This document shows, in pieces, positions 28,683 through 35,752 of a stretch of 64,000 nucleotides of DNA; position 1 is the first letter of the stretch; the number at the start of each line of letters is the position of its first letter. The position numbers and the translations under genes are program-made. The notes beneath the pieces were generated by a model. That model did no database searches and was not told the origin of the DNA. It was given only the letters and a program-made list of their open reading frames with translations. The stretch covers positions 1 to 64,000 of the forward strand of contig NZ_BBWQ01000006.1 of the NCBI RefSeq assembly GCF_001463885.1, written 5' to 3'. Origin of the DNA: Aureimonas altamirensis. Lineage in GTDB: Bacteria; Pseudomonadota; Alphaproteobacteria; Rhizobiales; Rhizobiaceae.

Positions 28683-28741
28683 TGGTAGACAAGCTCCGAT
28701 TGCAGTATGAATAGGTGGCTAACGCTGGATTGGGGAGCCGC

Positions 28742-29917
28742 TTGAAGAACCATCGGGCCTCGACTGCCTTCAAGGGCTACTCCCTTCCGAAGACGGCGTT
28801 GGGCCGCTGGCTTGGCCATATTTCGGAAGATGCACCCCTGGACGTCAAAGGCCGGCTTCTGGGCGGCCTCTTCGGCACCATCCCCATCTTCCTGGGCGGT
28901 GTGGTCAACACCATTCTCGTAGCCGCGTTCATCGCAATCCGCATCGATGCGCCACGCTTCTATGTCTGGGTCGGCCTCGAGATCGTCATCTGTCTGGCCC
29001 GTGTCTATCTGCTGGTCCGCTCCAGGCGGATGGCGCAGCTTGGCCGCGACACCAATACCGACGGCATGATCATGCTGGCGCTCGCCTGGGCGGCCGGCGT
29101 CGGCTACGGCAGCTTCATATGCCTCCTGTCCGGCGATTGGGTCGCCTCCACCATGGCGATGATGTCGTCGGCCGCCATGATCGGCGGTATCTGCATCCGC
29201 AATTTCGGCACGCCGCGCCTGGCCTCGGCCATGATGGTGCTGGCCTTCGGCCCCGCCTGCTTTGCGCTGCCCTTTACCGGAGAGCCGCTGCTGCTGCTCG
29301 GGCTGGTGCAGATACCCTTCTATATCTTCAGCATGTGCCGCGCCGCCTATGTGCTGAAATCCACTCTCGTCACCACCATGATGGCCGAGCGCCAGCACGC
29401 GCTTCTATCCAGCCACGACGCGCTGACGGGCCTTCTCAACCGGGTAGGGCTTGCTGCCGAACTGCGTCGTATCGCCACCCGGGCGCAGGCGTCCGGACGG
29501 CTGGTCGCCTTCATGTACATGGACCTCGACGGCTTCAAGGCGGTCAATGACGGCTACGGCCACGATGTCGGCGACGCCGTCTTGAGCGCTGCCGCGGACC
29601 GGCTCCAGGACCATTGTTCCGCCGAAGCGGGAGCGGCGCGCATAGGGGGCGACGAGTTCGTCTTCGTCTGCCTGTGCGACGACGCGGCATCGGCCGAAAG
29701 GGTGGCCGTGCGCCTGATGCAGGATCTGCAGGCCCCCTACGAGATTGCGGGCATCGACATCGACTCCATCGGCGTCAGCATCGGCATTGCGTTCGCCGAG
29801 CCAGATGCAGCCGGGCGGGTCGAGCTGAAGCCACTGCTGCGGGCCGCCGACAGCGCGCTCTATGCGGCCAAGAGAAGCGGCAAGGGCAAGTTTACGCGGG
29901 CTGCGGACCCTGTATAA
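28742..29917 (+). CDS. Membrane diguanylate cyclase (GGDEF)
   Basis: A roughly 391-residue protein: about six hydrophobic segments in the first 210 residues (a membrane sensor of no named family), then a GGDEF domain with SSHDALTGLLNRVG, MDLDGFKAVNDGYGH and the intact RIGGDEF active loop. It should make cyclic di-GMP from GTP. No RxxD inhibitory site precedes the loop. TTG 28742 has GGGGAG 4 bases upstream; GTG 28715 is the alternative. It lies upstream of the REC-PAS-GGDEF-EAL gene. Confidence 0.9.
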   Translation: MKNHRASTAFKGYSLPKTALGRWLGHISEDAPLDVKGRLLGGLFGTIPIFLGGVVNTILVAAFIAIRIDAPRFYVWVGLEIVICLARVYLLVRSRRMAQLGRDTNTDGMIMLALAWAAGVGYGSFICLLSGDWVASTMAMMSSAAMIGGICIRNFGTPRLASAMMVLAFGPACFALPFTGEPLLLLGLVQIPFYIFSMCRAAYVLKSTLVTTMMAERQHALLSSHDALTGLLNRVGLAAELRRIATRAQASGRLVAFMYMDLDGFKAVNDGYGHDVGDAVLSAAADRLQDHCSAEAGAARIGGDEFVFVCLCDDAASAERVAVRLMQDLQAPYEIAGIDIDSIGVSIGIAFAEPDAAGRVELKPLLRAADSALYAAKRSGKGKFTRAADPV

Positions 29918-30062: not shown

Positions 30063-32213
30063 ATGTCATTGATAGTCGTTGTTGATGATCAAGGCAGCAA
30101 CCAAAGGATATACTCTCGCCTGTCGAAGCTCGCGGGCGAGGACGTCAACGTCAAAACCTTTGCAAGTCCGTTCCGGATGCTCGACTGGCTCGAAGAAGGC
30201 GAGCCGGACCTCATCATCACGGACTACAAGATGCCGGGCATGGACGGTGCGCAGCTAACCCGTCGCCTTCGCGACATGCCCAATTCCGCCGACGTTCCCA
30301 TCATCGTGCTGACGGCCTACGAAGATCTCAGCTTCCGCCTCATGGCCCTCGAGGCCGGCGCGACGGACTTCCTGCAGACGCCCGTCAACCACGAAGAATT
30401 CGTCAGCCGGGCACGCAATTTCCTGAAGTTCCGCCGCCAGCAGCAGAGCGTCAAGCTGAAGGCGCAGGCGCTGGAGCGCCGTCTGCTGGATTCCGAGTAT
30501 TTCCGCCAGATTGCCGTGCGCGACAGCCGCGAGCAACTGGCGCAGGTCATCGATACGGTGCCGGCGCTGATCAGCGCCACCGACCGCGATGGCCGATGCG
30601 TCTTCGTGAATGCGATGTTTGCCGTCTATTCCGGCCGCGATCCGGCCGCCTGCGTCGGCCTTCCTGCCGAAACGCTGCTGGCAGGCACCGACGTGACACG
30701 GCTTCGGCAGGTGGAGCGCAGCGTGCTGACGCGCGGCCTGCCGCACCCTGCCTACGAGGAAGCGATCCAATCTCCCGAAGGGAGCGAGCGCTACTTCCTG
30801 ACGACGAAGTCGCCGCTGATGGACGCCAACAGCAAGGTCGTCGGCGTCCTGACCTCATCGCTGGACGTCAGCGAGCAGAAGATGGCGCATGAGCGGCTGC
30901 GGGAGCTGGCCCTTCATGACGGGCTCACCGGCCTGCCCAACCGGACCTATCTATCGAACCGCGTCCAGTCGCTGCTGCTGGAGCCGGCGCGGCCGGGGCG
31001 CATGCATGCGCTGCACCTTCTGGATATCGACCGCTTCAAGACCGTCAACGATACGCTCGGCCATTATGTCGGCGACCAGCTCCTGCAGTCTATCGCCCAG
31101 AGGCTGAAGCTGCTGATCGACGAAAACACGACCTTGTCCCGCCTCGGCGGCGACGAGTTCGCCTTCCTGCAGGAGGGGATCACCGACGTGTCGGAGGCGG
31201 AAGCGCTGGCCCGCCGCATCGTCTCCACCCTGTCCGATCCGATCGATGTCGCCCGCCACCGGGTCAACGCCACGGCAAGCCTCGGCATTGCGCTCATCGG
31301 CCCGCATGGGCAGGACGTGAACGAAATTCTCAAGAATGCCGATCTGGCCATGTATCAGGCCAAATCCGAAGGCCGTAACCGATACAGCGTCTTCGCCGCC
31401 GATTTGCGGGCCCGCATCAAGGAATCCTCCCTGCTCGAGGCCGCCATGCGCGATGCGCTGGCGCGTGGAGAGTTCGTGCTGCATTACCAGCCGCAGGTGG
31501 ATATCGCCTCGCGCCGCATCGCCGGCGTGGAGGCGCTAATCCGCTGGCAGCATCCGCAGCGCGGGCTTTTGTCGCCGGCCGAATTCCTGAGCGTCGCCGA
31601 AGAGACGGGGTTGATCGCGCCCATCTCCGACTGGGTCCTGCGCGAGGCGTGCCGCCAGGCGCAGGAGTGGCGCACCATGGGCTTCGAAAGCCTCACCATG
31701 GCCGTCAATTTGGCGCCGGTGCAGTTCAATTACGACGACATTCCGAAGATGGTGTCGCGCGTGCTGGCCGACACCGGCCTGCCATCGGCCAATCTGGAAC
31801 TGGAACTGACGGAGAACACCTTCTTCGATCCGGTCCAGAACCCGTCTCCGCGCTTGGCGGTGCTGCACAACATGGGCATCCGGCTGACCCTCGACGATTT
31901 CGGAACGGGGTATTCCTCGCTGCTGCGGGTCAAGATGCTGCCCATCGACGCGATCAAGATCGATCGCGGGTTTCTGGAGGCCATCCCGGGCAGCGAGGCG
32001 GACGCCGCCATCGTGCGTGCGATCATCCGGCTGGCTCATGGCCTGAAGCTGCAGGTGGTTGCCGAAGGTGTCGAAACCGCCGAGCAACTCGCCTTCCTCG
32101 CGGATGAAGGATGCGAACTGGTGCAGGGTTTCTATCTCGGGCGTCCGGTGGCAGCCGACGCCTGCCTGAAGGCGCTGCTCGACAACAGGCAGGCAGTCGG
32201 CAACGCCGCATAA
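30063..32213 (+). CDS. REC-PAS-GGDEF-EAL response regulator (cyclic-di-GMP turnover), probable partner of the RpfC-like kinase
   Basis: About 716 residues: receiver (1-120) with phosphorylatable Asp54 in ITDYKMPGMDG, PAS (about 165-275), GGDEF (about 285-445, LGGDEF intact, no RxxD site) and EAL (about 455-700). The EAL domain keeps EALIRW, ELTEN, DDFGTGYSS, IKIDRGF, AEGVET and QGFYLGRP, so phosphodiesterase activity is likely; both activities may exist. The receiver has Thr where the conserved Lys before Pro is expected (DFLQTPV). It lies 42 bases before the RpfC-like kinase, the place RpfG would hold. ATG 30030 is an alternative start. Confidence 0.93.
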   Translation: MSLIVVVDDQGSNQRIYSRLSKLAGEDVNVKTFASPFRMLDWLEEGEPDLIITDYKMPGMDGAQLTRRLRDMPNSADVPIIVLTAYEDLSFRLMALEAGATDFLQTPVNHEEFVSRARNFLKFRRQQQSVKLKAQALERRLLDSEYFRQIAVRDSREQLAQVIDTVPALISATDRDGRCVFVNAMFAVYSGRDPAACVGLPAETLLAGTDVTRLRQVERSVLTRGLPHPAYEEAIQSPEGSERYFLTTKSPLMDANSKVVGVLTSSLDVSEQKMAHERLRELALHDGLTGLPNRTYLSNRVQSLLLEPARPGRMHALHLLDIDRFKTVNDTLGHYVGDQLLQSIAQRLKLLIDENTTLSRLGGDEFAFLQEGITDVSEAEALARRIVSTLSDPIDVARHRVNATASLGIALIGPHGQDVNEILKNADLAMYQAKSEGRNRYSVFAADLRARIKESSLLEAAMRDALARGEFVLHYQPQVDIASRRIAGVEALIRWQHPQRGLLSPAEFLSVAEETGLIAPISDWVLREACRQAQEWRTMGFESLTMAVNLAPVQFNYDDIPKMVSRVLADTGLPSANLELELTENTFFDPVQNPSPRLAVLHNMGIRLTLDDFGTGYSSLLRVKMLPIDAIKIDRGFLEAIPGSEADAAIVRAIIRLAHGLKLQVVAEGVETAEQLAFLADEGCELVQGFYLGRPVAADACLKALLDNRQAVGNAA

Positions 32214-32255
32214 AAAAACAAAGTAGAACGGCTTAACGGCGGATCAGAACGAGCT

Positions 32256-34802
32256 TTGAGTGTGATTATCAAAGAATGGGCGGCCTGGTTTCGCAGGCGC
32301 CCAGATCGCGAGCACGAGATCACGCTCAATCGTGCCGGCATCTCTCTGGCAATCCTGATCTTCACGCTGTTCTTCATGCCACACGGCGAAACCGCCTTCG
32401 CCGCGCGTCTGATCTCCGTGCTTTACCTTGTCTCGGCCATGATCCTTCTGGCGCATCTGATATGGCGGCCGGAAGTATCCAATGTCCGGCGCATCGTCGC
32501 GATGGCCGTCGACCTGGTGCTCCTGTCCTGCGGCCTCGCCATCGGGCAGGGCTCCGTCGCCATTCTCTACCCGTTCTATTACTGGATCATCCTCGGCAAC
32601 GGCTTCCGTTATGGCGAGGGCTATCTCTATTCCGCAACGGTGGCCGGTACGCTCGGCTTTCTGACGGTCATCCTGACCTCGCCTTACTGGCAGAGCCAGC
32701 CGCTTCTGTCGGGTGGCCTTCTCGGCGGCATCGTCATCCTGCCCCTCTACGCCGCAACGCTGATCCGCAGCCTGTCACGCGCCAAGGAAGCCGCCGAGCA
32801 GGCAAACCGGGCAAAATCCGCCTTCCTGACCAGCGTCAGCCACGAATTGCGCACGCCGCTCAACGCCATCATGGGGTCGACGGACCTCCTGGTGGATACC
32901 ACGCTCCGGCGCGATCAACGCGACATGGTGGACACGATCCGGGTCGCCTCCAGTGCGCTCCTGTCGCAGATCAACGATCTTCTCGATCTGTCCAGCATCG
33001 AATCCGGCCGGCTACAGCTGACGCCCGTCACCTTCGACCCGCTGGACCTTCTGGCCGGGGTGCGCGATGTCGGCGCCGTGCAGGCGCGGGCAAAAGACAT
33101 CGAGTTTCATCTGTTCGCGACCGCACGCACGCCATCGCTGCTGACCGCCGACGAGCGGCGCATGCGCGAGGTTCTCATCAACCTCGTCGGCAATGCCATC
33201 AAGTTCACCGAGACCGGGTCGGTGACCCTGTCGGTCGACTATGTCGAGGGCAAGGGCGCTCCGTCGCTGGTGTTCGAGGTGGAGGATACCGGCATCGGCA
33301 TGACCGATGACGAGCAGGAAGTCATCTTCAAGCGGTTCACGCAGGCCAACGCCACCATTCTCAATCGCTTCGGAGGGACCGGGCTGGGCCTTGCCATCGT
33401 GCGGGAACTGGTGGAGCTGCAGCGCGGCGATATCGAGGTTAGCAGCACCCCGGGCAAGGGCAGCCTGTTCCGGGTGCGCATTCCCGTGCGCAAGGCGAGC
33501 GAAGCGGAAGCGCCCACAGGTTCGCTTCTGGCCGAGACGAAGGTGATCCTTCTCGATCCGTCGGATGTCTATGGCGGCGTCGTACCGCCCGTGATACAGC
33601 GCAACAGCGGAATTGCCGTAATTGCCGGGACGGTAGAGCAGGCGGTGACGCAGATCGTGCTGCCGGCCCCGGATGAGATCCGGCATCGCGTGGTGCTGCT
33701 GGTTGAGGTGGAGACCGGCTGGCCGGAGGACGCCGACCCGGCGCAGTTCGTGGCCCATCTGAGGACAGCCGCTCCGACAGGCATATTCGGCTTGACGCGC
33801 CGGCCCAACGGGCTTCCGGCGGCGTCTATCAGACGCGTCGTTCCCTGCATCGTCGGCGAGGAGCGGTTCAGGGAGGATCTCATGCAGGCAATGCGACTGA
33901 TCAGGCGCGCTACGGAAGCCGCATCGGGCAGCCATTCCACCATCGTGCGCCGCGAGAAGGGCCTCCGCATACTTCTGGCCGACGACAACCGCGTCAACCA
34001 GAAGGTCATCAGCCGGATTCTCGAGGCGGGCGGGCACTACGTCAGGGTGGTCGTCGATGGCGAAGCGGCCCTCGACGCCATGGAGGCGGGCGGCATCGAT
34101 TTTGTGCTGATGGACCTGAACATGCCGGGCATGGACGGCGTGGAATCCACCAAGCTGTTTCGCATGATGTCGCTTGGCCGGCCGCATCTGCCGATTGTCG
34201 GCCTGACGGCCGACGCAACGAAGGCGGCAAGCGACCGGGCAGTGGAAGCCGGCATGGACGCCTGTCTGACAAAGCCCGTCAACGGGCCCACCCTGCTCGA
34301 CAAGATCGATCTTCTGTTTGCCGAGCACGGCGACGGTGCCGCTTTGGACGCGGATCGACGGCCCGTGGCGGACCTGAAGCTGGTAAGCGAGACGGAGGTG
34401 CCGTCGGCACGCGCCGGCGAAGGCGACCAGCATGTCGACACCGCAATGCTTAAGAACCTGGAGACCCTAGGTGGCCCGGCCTTCGTTGCGGCGGTCATAT
34501 CCGACTTCCTGACCGACGGCAGCGCTCTGCTGCTGGAGCTTCGGGAGGTTGTCGCGGCGGGCGATGTCGCCGGCTATGCGGAAAAGGCGCACGCGCTTCA
34601 AAGCGGCGCGGGCAATATCGGTGTGCTCCGGGTGGCGGAATCGTGCCGGAGCTGGCGTCCCCAATCGTCGCAGGAACTGGTCAAGGCCGGGCCCGCCGTC
34701 GTGGAAAGGATCGAGCAGGAGTTTGAAACCGCCCGCTCGATCCTGTTGCGTCAGCATGCGCGTCGTCCGCTTCTGATCTCCGACCGCGATCAGGGCGCCT
34801 GA
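32256..34802 (+). CDS. rpfC: RpfC-type hybrid sensor histidine kinase (DSF receptor)
   Basis: An 848-residue kinase. Residues 1-175 hold a basic N-terminus and about five membrane helices that align by eye with Xanthomonas RpfC (ILGNGFRYG, SPYWQSQPLLS, PLYAATLIRS). Then HisKA (His196, SHELRTPLN), an ATPase domain (VGNAIKF, DTGIGM, FGGTGLGL), an unusual stretch at 430-555 that looks like a degenerate receiver, a true receiver (Asp620, Lys673) and an Hpt domain (His779 in AHALQSGAGNIG). RpfC senses the fatty-acid signal DSF made by RpfF. TTG 32256 starts the frame. The convergent rpfF-like gene ends 5 bases away. Confidence 0.92.
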   Translation: MSVIIKEWAAWFRRRPDREHEITLNRAGISLAILIFTLFFMPHGETAFAARLISVLYLVSAMILLAHLIWRPEVSNVRRIVAMAVDLVLLSCGLAIGQGSVAILYPFYYWIILGNGFRYGEGYLYSATVAGTLGFLTVILTSPYWQSQPLLSGGLLGGIVILPLYAATLIRSLSRAKEAAEQANRAKSAFLTSVSHELRTPLNAIMGSTDLLVDTTLRRDQRDMVDTIRVASSALLSQINDLLDLSSIESGRLQLTPVTFDPLDLLAGVRDVGAVQARAKDIEFHLFATARTPSLLTADERRMREVLINLVGNAIKFTETGSVTLSVDYVEGKGAPSLVFEVEDTGIGMTDDEQEVIFKRFTQANATILNRFGGTGLGLAIVRELVELQRGDIEVSSTPGKGSLFRVRIPVRKASEAEAPTGSLLAETKVILLDPSDVYGGVVPPVIQRNSGIAVIAGTVEQAVTQIVLPAPDEIRHRVVLLVEVETGWPEDADPAQFVAHLRTAAPTGIFGLTRRPNGLPAASIRRVVPCIVGEERFREDLMQAMRLIRRATEAASGSHSTIVRREKGLRILLADDNRVNQKVISRILEAGGHYVRVVVDGEAALDAMEAGGIDFVLMDLNMPGMDGVESTKLFRMMSLGRPHLPIVGLTADATKAASDRAVEAGMDACLTKPVNGPTLLDKIDLLFAEHGDGAALDADRRPVADLKLVSETEVPSARAGEGDQHVDTAMLKNLETLGGPAFVAAVISDFLTDGSALLLELREVVAAGDVAGYAEKAHALQSGAGNIGVLRVAESCRSWRPQSSQELVKAGPAVVERIEQEFETARSILLRQHARRPLLISDRDQGA

Positions 34803-34807
34803 CGGCC

Positions 34808-35752
34808 TCATTCAGCGGCGATCAGCGCGTCCTGCTCGCGGCCTATGTTGCAGCGACGATCCTGGGCGGCTGCAAGGCGCTCCATCTTCTTCAGGTCGGA
34901 CGGCGCAAGGCGCATCGCGGCATCGACCCAGATGTCGACGACATCGCGCAGCTCCTGCAGGGAGATGCCGGCAACCCGGTTGCGGGTGCGGAACACCGCC
35001 TGCATGGCGTTGTGGCTGCGCGACTGCCGTGCGCACCATGCGCGCAACGCCGCTTCGCCTTCTCCGTCTTCCGCCAGAACGTCGACAAGCCCGATGCGGT
35101 GCAGCTCTTCCGCGGTGTAGATACGGCCGCTGAGGATCATGCGCTCGGCTTCGACGGCACAGATGCGGCGCGCGATCAGGCTATAGGCGCCCATGCCGGG
35201 GAACAGGTTGAACAGCACCTCCGGCAGGCCGAAACGGGCGCTGCGCTCGGCCACGATGACGTTGCATGACAAGGCCGTCTCGAAGCCGCCGCCCAGCGCA
35301 TCACCCTGCACGAGCGCCATGGTGACGACCGGCTGGTCGTAGCTGACCACGTTGTTCCAGACAATGTCGACGCAGGAATGGGCATACTTCTGGAGTAGAA
35401 GCTTGTGGCCCTTGCGGACGGCATCGGCGAAGAGGCGCAGGTCGCCGCCGAGGTTGAAGATGCCCGTGGACCGCGAGGCGACAACGAAATACTTGAATGG
35501 CAGCTCATTTTCGGGCGTCTGCGCCATGCGGTTGCGCAGGAAAGACTGCATCGATGTTACGTCCCGAAGCAGCTCCGGCGTGACGCTGGGCCGGGATTGC
35601 GGCTGCAGGTGACACCAGTAGATGCCGGCATCGCGGTCGAGCGAAAGATCGACATCGGAGTAAAGCGGCGTCCATGCGTCGCGGTCCTGCAGGCCGATGC
35701 CGGCCGTGGAGAGCAGGGAGGTCTGGGAAGGGTTCAAGAACTGGAAGGTCAT
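34808..35752 (-). CDS. rpfF: DSF synthase RpfF (crotonase family)
   Basis: A 314-residue crotonase-fold enzyme matching RpfF, which makes cis-2-unsaturated fatty acid signals from acyl carrier protein thioesters by dehydration and thioester cleavage. The oxyanion-hole segment is GIFNLGGDLRLF. Both catalytic glutamates are present and spaced as in Xanthomonas (20 residues apart): Glu158 in GDALGGGFETAL and Glu178 in FGLPEVLFNLFPGMGAY. The C-terminal helix with DIWVDAAM also matches. It converges on the rpfC-like gene rather than forming an operon. AGGAG lies 8 bases before the ATG. Confidence 0.94.
   Translation of the reverse strand: MTFQFLNPSQTSLLSTAGIGLQDRDAWTPLYSDVDLSLDRDAGIYWCHLQPQSRPSVTPELLRDVTSMQSFLRNRMAQTPENELPFKYFVVASRSTGIFNLGGDLRLFADAVRKGHKLLLQKYAHSCVDIVWNNVVSYDQPVVTMALVQGDALGGGFETALSCNVIVAERSARFGLPEVLFNLFPGMGAYSLIARRICAVEAERMILSGRIYTAEELHRIGLVDVLAEDGEGEAALRAWCARQSRSHNAMQAVFRTRNRVAGISLQELRDVVDIWVDAAMRLAPSDLKKMERLAAAQDRRCNIGREQDALIAAE

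What the first reader, a model, noticed from the sequence alone, without database searches (positions are those of the whole stretch)
30063..35752. A complete DSF-type quorum-sensing circuit in a Rhizobiales-type genome, with a GGDEF-EAL output instead of RpfG
Seen: an RpfF-type crotonase with both catalytic glutamates at the correct 20-residue spacing, a hybrid kinase whose five-helix sensor region matches RpfC by eye over its length (not just the kinase core), and a REC-PAS-GGDEF-EAL protein directly upstream of the kinase. Known: in Xanthomonas rpfF makes the fatty-acid signal DSF, RpfC senses it and RpfG (REC-HD-GYP) breaks down cyclic di-GMP. Inference: here the RpfC phosphorelay ends on a protein that can both make and break cyclic di-GMP, so the signal could act in either direction. 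The gene order (rpfF convergent on rpfC) also differs from the classical cluster.
Basis: partly seen in the sequence, partly recalled or inferred. Interest (0 to 1): 0.9.

Follow-up and report, generated by a model that had tools for sequence, protein, structure and literature searches.

The report
DSF signalling circuit with swapped output
This bacterium appears to carry a fatty-acid cell-to-cell signalling circuit like that of Xanthomonas, in which the sensor's partner protein could both make and break the messenger cyclic di-GMP, and related bacteria have the same circuit with other partner proteins, so it looks like a signalling cassette with a replaceable output.

Summary
In detail: a REC-PAS-GGDEF-EAL protein (30063-32213 +), an RpfC-type hybrid kinase (32256-34802 +) and an RpfF-type crotonase (34808-35752 -). 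One interpretive point is wrong: convergent rpfF and rpfC are the classical Xanthomonas layout. The locus keeps the rpfG-rpfC-rpfF order with HD-GYP replaced; PF13487 finds nothing in the genome at E<=0.001. In the genus the three genes share the same 5 of 21 genomes. Of 80 named loci found through the sensor, 52 have the full layout. Catalytic residues of both cyclic di-GMP enzymes are kept in 67 of 67 outputs. Output receivers form one clade with HD-GYP RpfG receivers, apart from the other receivers sampled: the receiver stayed, the effector changed. A third effector exists: 17 of 23 further alphaproteobacterial loci have REC-PAS-histidine kinase directly upstream of the sensor kinase. Sensor residues R15, D17 and E19 are kept, but Q22 is M, I or L in this lineage. 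Signal chemistry and direction of the cyclic di-GMP effect are untested. New variant of a known kind.

The parts
30063..32213 (+). output gene in the rpfG position: REC-PAS-GGDEF-EAL protein (716 aa from the ATG at 30063; ORF open from 30030, and residue numbers in this report count from 30030)
   Evidence: catalytic residues
30072..30413 (+). receiver domain, of the RpfG receiver lineage
   Evidence: Pfam PF00072; trees
30534..30881 (+). PAS domain (PAS_4/PAS)
30909..31382 (+). GGDEF domain, motif GGDEF intact, no RxxD inhibitory site in the window copy
31443..32147 (+). EAL domain, the catalytic positions checked are intact
32256..34802 (+). rpfC-type hybrid histidine kinase (848 aa from a TTG start): sensor-HisKA-HATPase-REC-Hpt
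32256..32771 (+). multi-helix membrane sensor region with N-terminal RRPDREHEI motif
33969..34307 (+). receiver domain of the kinase (counterpart of the part of RpfC that is bound to RpfF in 3m6m)
34494..34730 (+). Hpt domain, phospho-accepting H779
34808..35752 (-). rpfF-type crotonase (314 aa), convergent on rpfC, 5 bases between the two genes' ends
28715..29917 (+). 400-aa GGDEF protein just upstream; a GGDEF protein of 395 and 402 aa stands at the same place in L073 (A. altamirensis) and L075; membership of the circuit uncertain

Best explanation
This is an alphaproteobacterial form of the RpfF/RpfC DSF circuit. Inferred working: RpfF makes a cis-2-unsaturated fatty acid. The RpfC-type kinase senses it through its short N-terminal tail and membrane helices, autophosphorylates, and relays phosphate through its own receiver and Hpt domain to the receiver of the neighbouring REC-PAS-GGDEF-EAL protein. 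That changes the balance of its cyclic di-GMP synthesis and breakdown. In relatives the same receiver lineage is joined to HD-GYP (non-alphaproteobacteria) or to a histidine kinase (other alphaproteobacteria), so the synthase, sensor and receiver behave as one cassette with an exchangeable effector. Shown here by sequence: domains, kept catalytic and phosphorelay residues, conserved synteny, co-occurrence, shared receiver ancestry, no HD-GYP match in the genome. Inferred: signal identity, phosphotransfer, direction of the cyclic di-GMP change, and any RpfF-RpfC contact.
For: Domains. Order-wide sample: RpfF in 39 of 297 genomes; of the 38 besides the window, 12 have exactly this three-gene layout. 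Named loci: 52 of 80. Genus: the three genes occur in the same 5 of 21 genomes; in the four besides the window identity is 79-98% (RpfF), 69-91% (sensor) and 89-100% (REC-PAS). D375 and E376 of GGDEF and E501, N560, E592, D622, D623, K643, E679, Q699 of EAL are kept in 67 of 67; receiver D65 in 66 of 67, the last a gap. Kinase H196, D620, Hpt H779 and RpfF E158, E178 are kept in 67 of 67. Sensor R15 63/67, D17 64/67, E19 67/67, which in X. campestris RpfC matter for DSF sensing (PMC5391125, abstract and passages). The 67 sets hold a few copies of the same or nearly the same genome (L144 and L038, L118 and L039; L090 nearly repeats another row). Output and RpfG receivers lie in one clade: 99/93 against 30 receivers of the window's genome plus 27 RpfC receivers, 0.999 among 105 rows, 0.998 among 127. 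No PF13487 in the genome at E<=0.001; the four above-cut-off PF01966 proteins are GlnD-like, a phosphohydrolase with HD_assoc, RelA/SpoT and YfbR-like.
Against: Nothing here shows that a DSF is made. RpfF scores 219 against NCBIfam's RpfF equivalog (cut-off 550); six RpfF proteins from HD-GYP clusters score 226-367 and also fail, so this excludes nothing. Q22, whose replacement lowers DSF sensing in X. campestris, is I here, and S18 is R. In 4 of 38 order relatives the kinase stands beside RpfF with no such output gene within about four genes, in 6 of 38 RpfF stands without any of these partners, and in 14 of 38 it stands by a GGDEF-EAL protein lacking this receiver. In 5 of 80 named loci output and kinase stand together without RpfF next door. 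The RpfF tree does not make the RpfFs with this output one group (8 changes). One further genome of the genus, G663, has a distant sensor match (32%, E 6e-15) and two have a 33% RpfF, none with the rest. rpfB was not sought.
Confidence: 0.78

Rival explanations
1. An RpfR-type circuit: the GGDEF-EAL protein senses the fatty acid itself through its PAS domain, as RpfR does, and the kinase is a bystander.
For: RpfR is a PAS-GGDEF-EAL protein convergent with rpfF in Burkholderia; 14 of 38 order relatives have RpfF beside a GGDEF-EAL protein without this receiver.
Against: The window protein begins with a receiver. Eleven of those 14 neighbours form their own GGDEF-EAL clade (0.976), while the cluster outputs, leaving out L167, form one clade with L306, L307 and L309 (0.999 and 100). 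The window's PAS matched none of the 14 at E 1e-3. The kinase is conserved beside the output gene.
Confidence: 0.1
2. RpfF and RpfC stand together but the sensed or made compound is another fatty acid, or RpfF is a house-keeping crotonase, so this is not DSF signalling in the strict sense.
For: Sensor position 22 is M, I or L in 67 of 67 kinases with this layout but Q in 13 of 13 non-alphaproteobacterial ones and 22 of 24 sensors of other alphaproteobacteria; S18 is R in the window.
Against: R15, D17 and E19 and both RpfF glutamates are kept; the fold is closest to RpfF/DfsA and not to general crotonases; the genes co-occur.
Confidence: 0.15
3. The neighbours are unrelated signalling genes placed together by chance.
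For: Such genes are common: 6 EAL and 46 receiver matches in this genome.
Against: Same order and orientation in 52 of 80 named loci and 12 of 38 order relatives; the same 5 of 21 genomes; receivers form one lineage.
Confidence: 0.02

Closest known systems
Xanthomonas RpfF-RpfC-RpfG (rpfGHC convergent on rpfF)
   Same: synthase with both glutamates, sensor tail motif, HK-REC-Hpt kinase, receiver lineage, gene order and convergence; sensor-only ORFs between output and rpfC in Inquilinus-type loci recall rpfH. The receiver and motif comparisons used unnamed HD-GYP clusters, not X. campestris itself
   Different: output is PAS-GGDEF-EAL, not HD-GYP; sensor Q22 replaced; no HD-GYP match in the genome
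Burkholderia RpfF-RpfR (PAS-GGDEF-EAL, convergent with rpfF)
   Same: rpfF beside a PAS-GGDEF-EAL protein
   Different: here a receiver heads the protein and an RpfC kinase stands between; the GGDEF-EAL region is not of the clade of the RpfR-like neighbours seen in the order; Burkholderia RpfR itself was not in the tree
Leptospirillum rpfFCG
   Same: RpfF, RpfC and a receiver protein clustered (PMC8357829, passages)
   Different: there a one-directional operon with HD-GYP RpfG

Membership tests
RpfF (DSF synthase) | crotonase fold closest to RpfF/DfsA, glutamates equivalent to E141 and E161 | tested here: met
RpfF (DSF synthase) | NCBIfam NF053515 cut-off of 550 | tested here: not met
   219.1; six of six RpfF of HD-GYP clusters also fail, 226-367, so the model is narrower than the family; the PRK08788 cut-off of 177 is met (359)
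RpfF (DSF synthase) | makes cis-2-unsaturated fatty acid | not testable with these tools
   needs LC-MS
RpfC | membrane sensor homologous to that of kinases in rpfG-rpfC-rpfF clusters | tested here: met
   the sensor profile finds kinases beside REC-HD-GYP and RpfF
RpfC | the five N-terminal residues that matter for DSF sensing (R15, D17, S18, E19, Q22) | tested here: inconclusive
   R15, D17, E19 present; S18 is R and Q22 is I in the window
RpfC | HisKA-HATPase-REC-Hpt with phospho-sites | tested here: met
RpfG | receiver joined to HD-GYP | tested here: not met
   output is PAS-GGDEF-EAL; no PF13487 in the genome
RpfG | receiver of the RpfG lineage in the gene upstream of rpfC | tested here: met
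RpfR | PAS-GGDEF-EAL protein with an N-terminal RpfF-binding domain and no receiver | tested here: not met
   receiver at residues 15-128. The RpfF-binding (FI) domain of RpfR is recalled; the title of 6dgn names one

The most novel reading that the evidence does not exclude
The rpf locus is a quorum-sensing cassette with an interchangeable output: RpfF, RpfC and one receiver lineage are inherited together while the effector fused to that receiver has been exchanged between at least three enzymes (HD-GYP, GGDEF-EAL, histidine kinase) and in some Roseomonas is reduced to REC-PAS. So the same kind of signal may lower cyclic di-GMP in one clade, raise or lower it in another, and feed a second phosphorelay in a third. 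In the mainly Hyphomicrobiales and Acetobacteraceae lineage of the window the DSF-sensing residue Q22 has also changed to M, I or L, which predicts a different preferred fatty acid.
Probability: 0.5. Interest if true: 0.78.

Novelty: new variant of a known kind. Interest (0 to 1): 0.64.

Why it matters
DSF signalling has been described as two core pathways, RpfC-RpfG and RpfR (review PMC4504480, passages). The sequences here point to a further, widespread alphaproteobacterial branch that joins the RpfC sensor to other outputs. If it works as inferred, bacteria such as Aureimonas, Roseomonas, Kaistia, Acidocella and Inquilinus (record titles) may speak and hear DSF-like signals with outcomes opposite to, or different from, those in Xanthomonas. 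It also gives a natural set for testing how a phosphorelay keeps its partner while the effector is exchanged, and a testable residue (22) for fatty-acid selectivity. Ten searches of the open-access library (listings only, and searches listed 20 of 25 and 25 of 1,442 papers) showed no title or abstract start reporting this arrangement. Passages of three more papers also did not: PMC9040811, a survey of 83 acidophiles including Acidiphilium, names complete DSF systems only in Acidithiobacillus and Leptospirillum in the passages I saw; PMC9409198; PMC10226988, on a DSF-inactivating FadD in Bradyrhizobium. Subscription journals were not searchable.

Tried and rejected
Rejected: convergence as an unusual feature. 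Rejected: output protein as the order's RpfR-like protein with a receiver added. Rejected: failure of the NCBIfam RpfF cut-off as evidence against RpfF. Rejected: an HD-GYP partner elsewhere in the genome; L177, a sub-cut-off PF01966 match at E 0.265, was not family-scanned. Led nowhere: PDB fold search of the sensor model, no match at E<=0.001; promoter and terminator scan, fewer matches than the shuffle means (1 against 1.7, 2 against 5.2); RpfF tree does not make the class with this output one group (8 changes), so RpfF alone does not date the exchange; PDB search of an RpfR-like neighbour (L054) matched only its GGDEF-EAL part among the 60 rows shown, so 'RpfR-like' rests on layout alone.

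Limits: classes rest on longest-ORF picks, single-sequence phmmer queries from the window and a recalled motif pattern for HD-GYP. In one search sensor-only ORFs between output and kinase were skipped over (L108, L114, L128, L130). Long N-terminal extensions in L037, L040, L047 and L048 may be over-extended ORFs. The 80 named loci are the best 80 of 317 by likeness to the window's sensor, hence biased toward this layout, and some are the same genomes as in the order sample. Background receivers come mainly from three genomes (the 30 best loci of 46 matches in the window's, the 30 best of 132 in two others), plus two receivers of HD-GYP proteins outside rpf loci from a fourth. Rows left out: trees used 26 of 66 output receivers, 13 and 21 of 67 GGDEF-EAL regions (with duplicates dropped); 20 of 30 background EAL loci passed the length filter. 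The tree was flagged as having few columns and an unsettled bootstrap; one long-branched receiver of the genome (L213) is drawn next to, outside, the supported clade, and the order of branching inside the clade is unresolved.
Full report
What is there. The window lies on contig C6 of a 4.19 Mb genome. The best named relatives of its sensor are in Aureimonas: A. altamirensis 88%, A. frigidaquae 78%, A. fodinaquatilis 69% identity, so the genome is most likely an Aureimonas. Three genes form the finding: 30063-32213 + (REC-PAS-GGDEF-EAL), 32256-34802 + (sensor-HisKA-HATPase-REC-Hpt) and 34808-35752 - (crotonase). The second and third converge, with 5 bases between their ends. A 400-aa GGDEF protein (28715-29917 +) stands just upstream; L073 and L075 have one there too.

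The synthase. The closest solved structure by sequence is RpfF of 3m6m (E 1.5e-54), followed by 7zq7, 5fus and 6dgn. The predicted structure (mean pLDDT 86.5) has RpfF/DfsA chains of these same entries and 3m6n as its top twelve PDB matches, with E of 4e-26 to 2e-22; the next crotonase is at 2.6e-16. E158 and E178 are kept in 67 of 67 RpfFs of loci with this layout; in 13 non-alphaproteobacterial ones E158 is kept in 13 and E178 in 12, the other being D. The NCBIfam RpfF model is not passed (219 of 550), nor by six of six RpfFs standing beside REC-HD-GYP (226-367).

The sensor. A profile of 19 sensor regions (A1) matches 70 of 398 genomes of the phylum at E<=1e-10. I took one stretch from each of 20 of these genomes. 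Nine show REC-HD-GYP, then the sensor kinase, then convergent RpfF; four more have convergent RpfF without HD-GYP next door; one has this report's output without RpfF next door; one has the full layout (L167); five, among them a second locus of the window's own genome, have no full kinase by my criterion. Cai et al. 2017 (PMC5391125, abstract and passages) report that R15, D17, S18, E19 and Q22 of X. campestris RpfC matter for DSF sensing. Counting the window from its TTG start, R15, D17 and E19 fall at the same numbers. Over 67 kinases of the layout R15 is kept in 63, D17 in 64, E19 in 67; position 18 is S 35, T 14, G 10, R 8 (R in the window); position 22 is M 53, I 8, L 6 (I in the window). 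In the 13 non-alphaproteobacterial kinases position 22 is Q in 13, and in 24 sensors of 23 loci of other alphaproteobacteria it is Q in 22 and M in 2 (L288, L289). The residue does not simply follow the output: L306, L307 and L309 have GGDEF-EAL outputs and Q22, and L288 and L289 have a REC-PAS-kinase nearby and M22. The window's lineage has thus lost a residue whose replacement reduces DSF sensing elsewhere. This is the best lead for a different ligand, and also the best point against calling it a plain DSF sensor.

The output. D375 and E376 of GGDEF, E501 of EAL and the other catalytic positions checked are identical in 67 of 67 proteins; the full GGDEF letters stand in 66, one having E for the first G; receiver D65 stands in 66 of 67, the last a gap. 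The window copy lacks the RxxD inhibitory site (positions 364-367 are D-E-N-T), while R stands at 364 in 37 and D at 367 in 46 of 67 (the motif is recalled). Both activities are therefore predicted; which one dominates is open. The 67 rows are the window, 52 named loci, L129, L167 and 12 loci of the order sample; at least L144 and L118 repeat genomes of that sample (contig lengths), and L073 is nearly the window.

Conservation. In the order, RpfF is found in 39 of 297 genomes at E<=1e-20. Besides the window, 38 neighbourhoods divide by my reading into 12 with exactly this layout, 4 with the kinase and convergent RpfF but no such output nearby, 14 with a GGDEF-EAL protein lacking this receiver (one, L053, cut by a contig end), 2 with REC-PAS-histidine kinase, and 6 with RpfF alone (one, L062, near a contig end). 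Among 80 named loci, 52 have the full layout and one (L129) has it with RpfF in the same direction. Five have output and kinase without RpfF next door, one has the output on the opposite strand, and three have a 253-254-aa REC-PAS protein in the output's place. The rest are other arrangements or cut by contig ends. By record titles they are mainly Hyphomicrobiales, Acetobacteraceae and Inquilinus; a few titles are odd for this group (L095 Burkholderiales, L142 Terriglobia, L128 Mycobacterium) and may be misassigned. In the genus, all three genes occur in the same 5 of 21 genomes; two further genomes have a 33% RpfF and one a 32% sensor match without the rest.

The effector exchange. A receiver tree with 26 output receivers, 9 RpfG receivers, 2 REC-PAS-kinase receivers, 27 RpfC receivers and 30 others of the window's genome puts the first three kinds in one clade (99/93). 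Adding 44 background receivers from other genomes, among them two from HD-GYP proteins outside rpf loci, leaves the clade intact (0.999, 105 rows, with 13 outputs; the one extra row inside is itself an output of this layout). Adding 19 more REC-PAS-kinase receivers and three more outputs keeps it, with no other row inside (0.998, 127 rows). A class-wide sample finds the sensor in 24 of 385 genomes at E<=1e-25. Of the 23 besides the window, 17 have REC-PAS-histidine kinase directly upstream of the sensor kinase, 14 of them with convergent RpfF and 3 cut at the contig start; 2 have one nearby in another orientation, 3 have REC-PAS-GGDEF-EAL and 1 has neither. Pfam on seven of the 19 kinase outputs shows six with HisKA and HATPase and one (L289) with HisKA but no HATPase match; a simple H-box pattern was found in 18 of 19, not in L302, which Pfam does give HisKA. 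The GGDEF-EAL regions, leaving out L167, form one clade with those of L306, L307 and L309 and apart from 11 RpfR-like proteins and 20 other GGDEF-EAL proteins (0.999 and 100). With L167 the outputs are not one clade; it may be a separate acquisition or a long-branch error.

No hidden rpfG. PF13487 finds nothing in the genome at E<=0.001, while its controls ring in 4 of 14 genomes; the four PF01966 proteins above cut-off are other enzymes.

Mechanism and verdict. By analogy with X. campestris (PMC4504480, passages) the signal should activate the kinase, and phosphate should pass to the receiver of the neighbouring gene. Each step beyond sequence is inference. I rate it a new variant of a known kind. 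It is interesting because the same synthase-sensor-receiver set is found with three different effectors.

Noticed in passing
L288-L303, L305, L308, L310: REC-PAS(-PAS)-histidine kinase in or near the rpfG position beside RpfC-type kinases in 19 of 23 alphaproteobacterial loci outside the order: a second kinase as the partner of a DSF-type sensor.
   Followed up: partly
L108, L114, L128, L130, L102: Inquilinus-type loci carry one or two sensor-only ORFs (sensor with a short kinase start) between output gene and rpfC, recalling rpfH of Xanthomonas; in L102 the kinase itself is split.
   Followed up: no
L099, L121, L138: Roseomonas loci with a 253-254-aa REC-PAS protein, without GGDEF-EAL, upstream of rpfC; L133 has a REC-PAS-GAF-PAS protein on the far side of rpfF.
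   Followed up: partly
L170:6348-8570 (own genome contig C11): A second kinase with a sensor region like RpfC's (E 4.9e-24), with a REC match but no Hpt match and no RpfF match in the neighbouring genes listed.
   Followed up: partly
L153, L155, L156: Kinase with two sensor regions in tandem in one protein of 910 aa.
   Followed up: no
L182, L183: Two genomes of the window's genus hold a distant RpfF (33% identity) without the kinase or output genes of this cluster.
   Followed up: no
window 28715-29917: 400-aa GGDEF protein directly upstream of the output gene, with a GGDEF protein at the same place in L073 and L075.
   Followed up: partly
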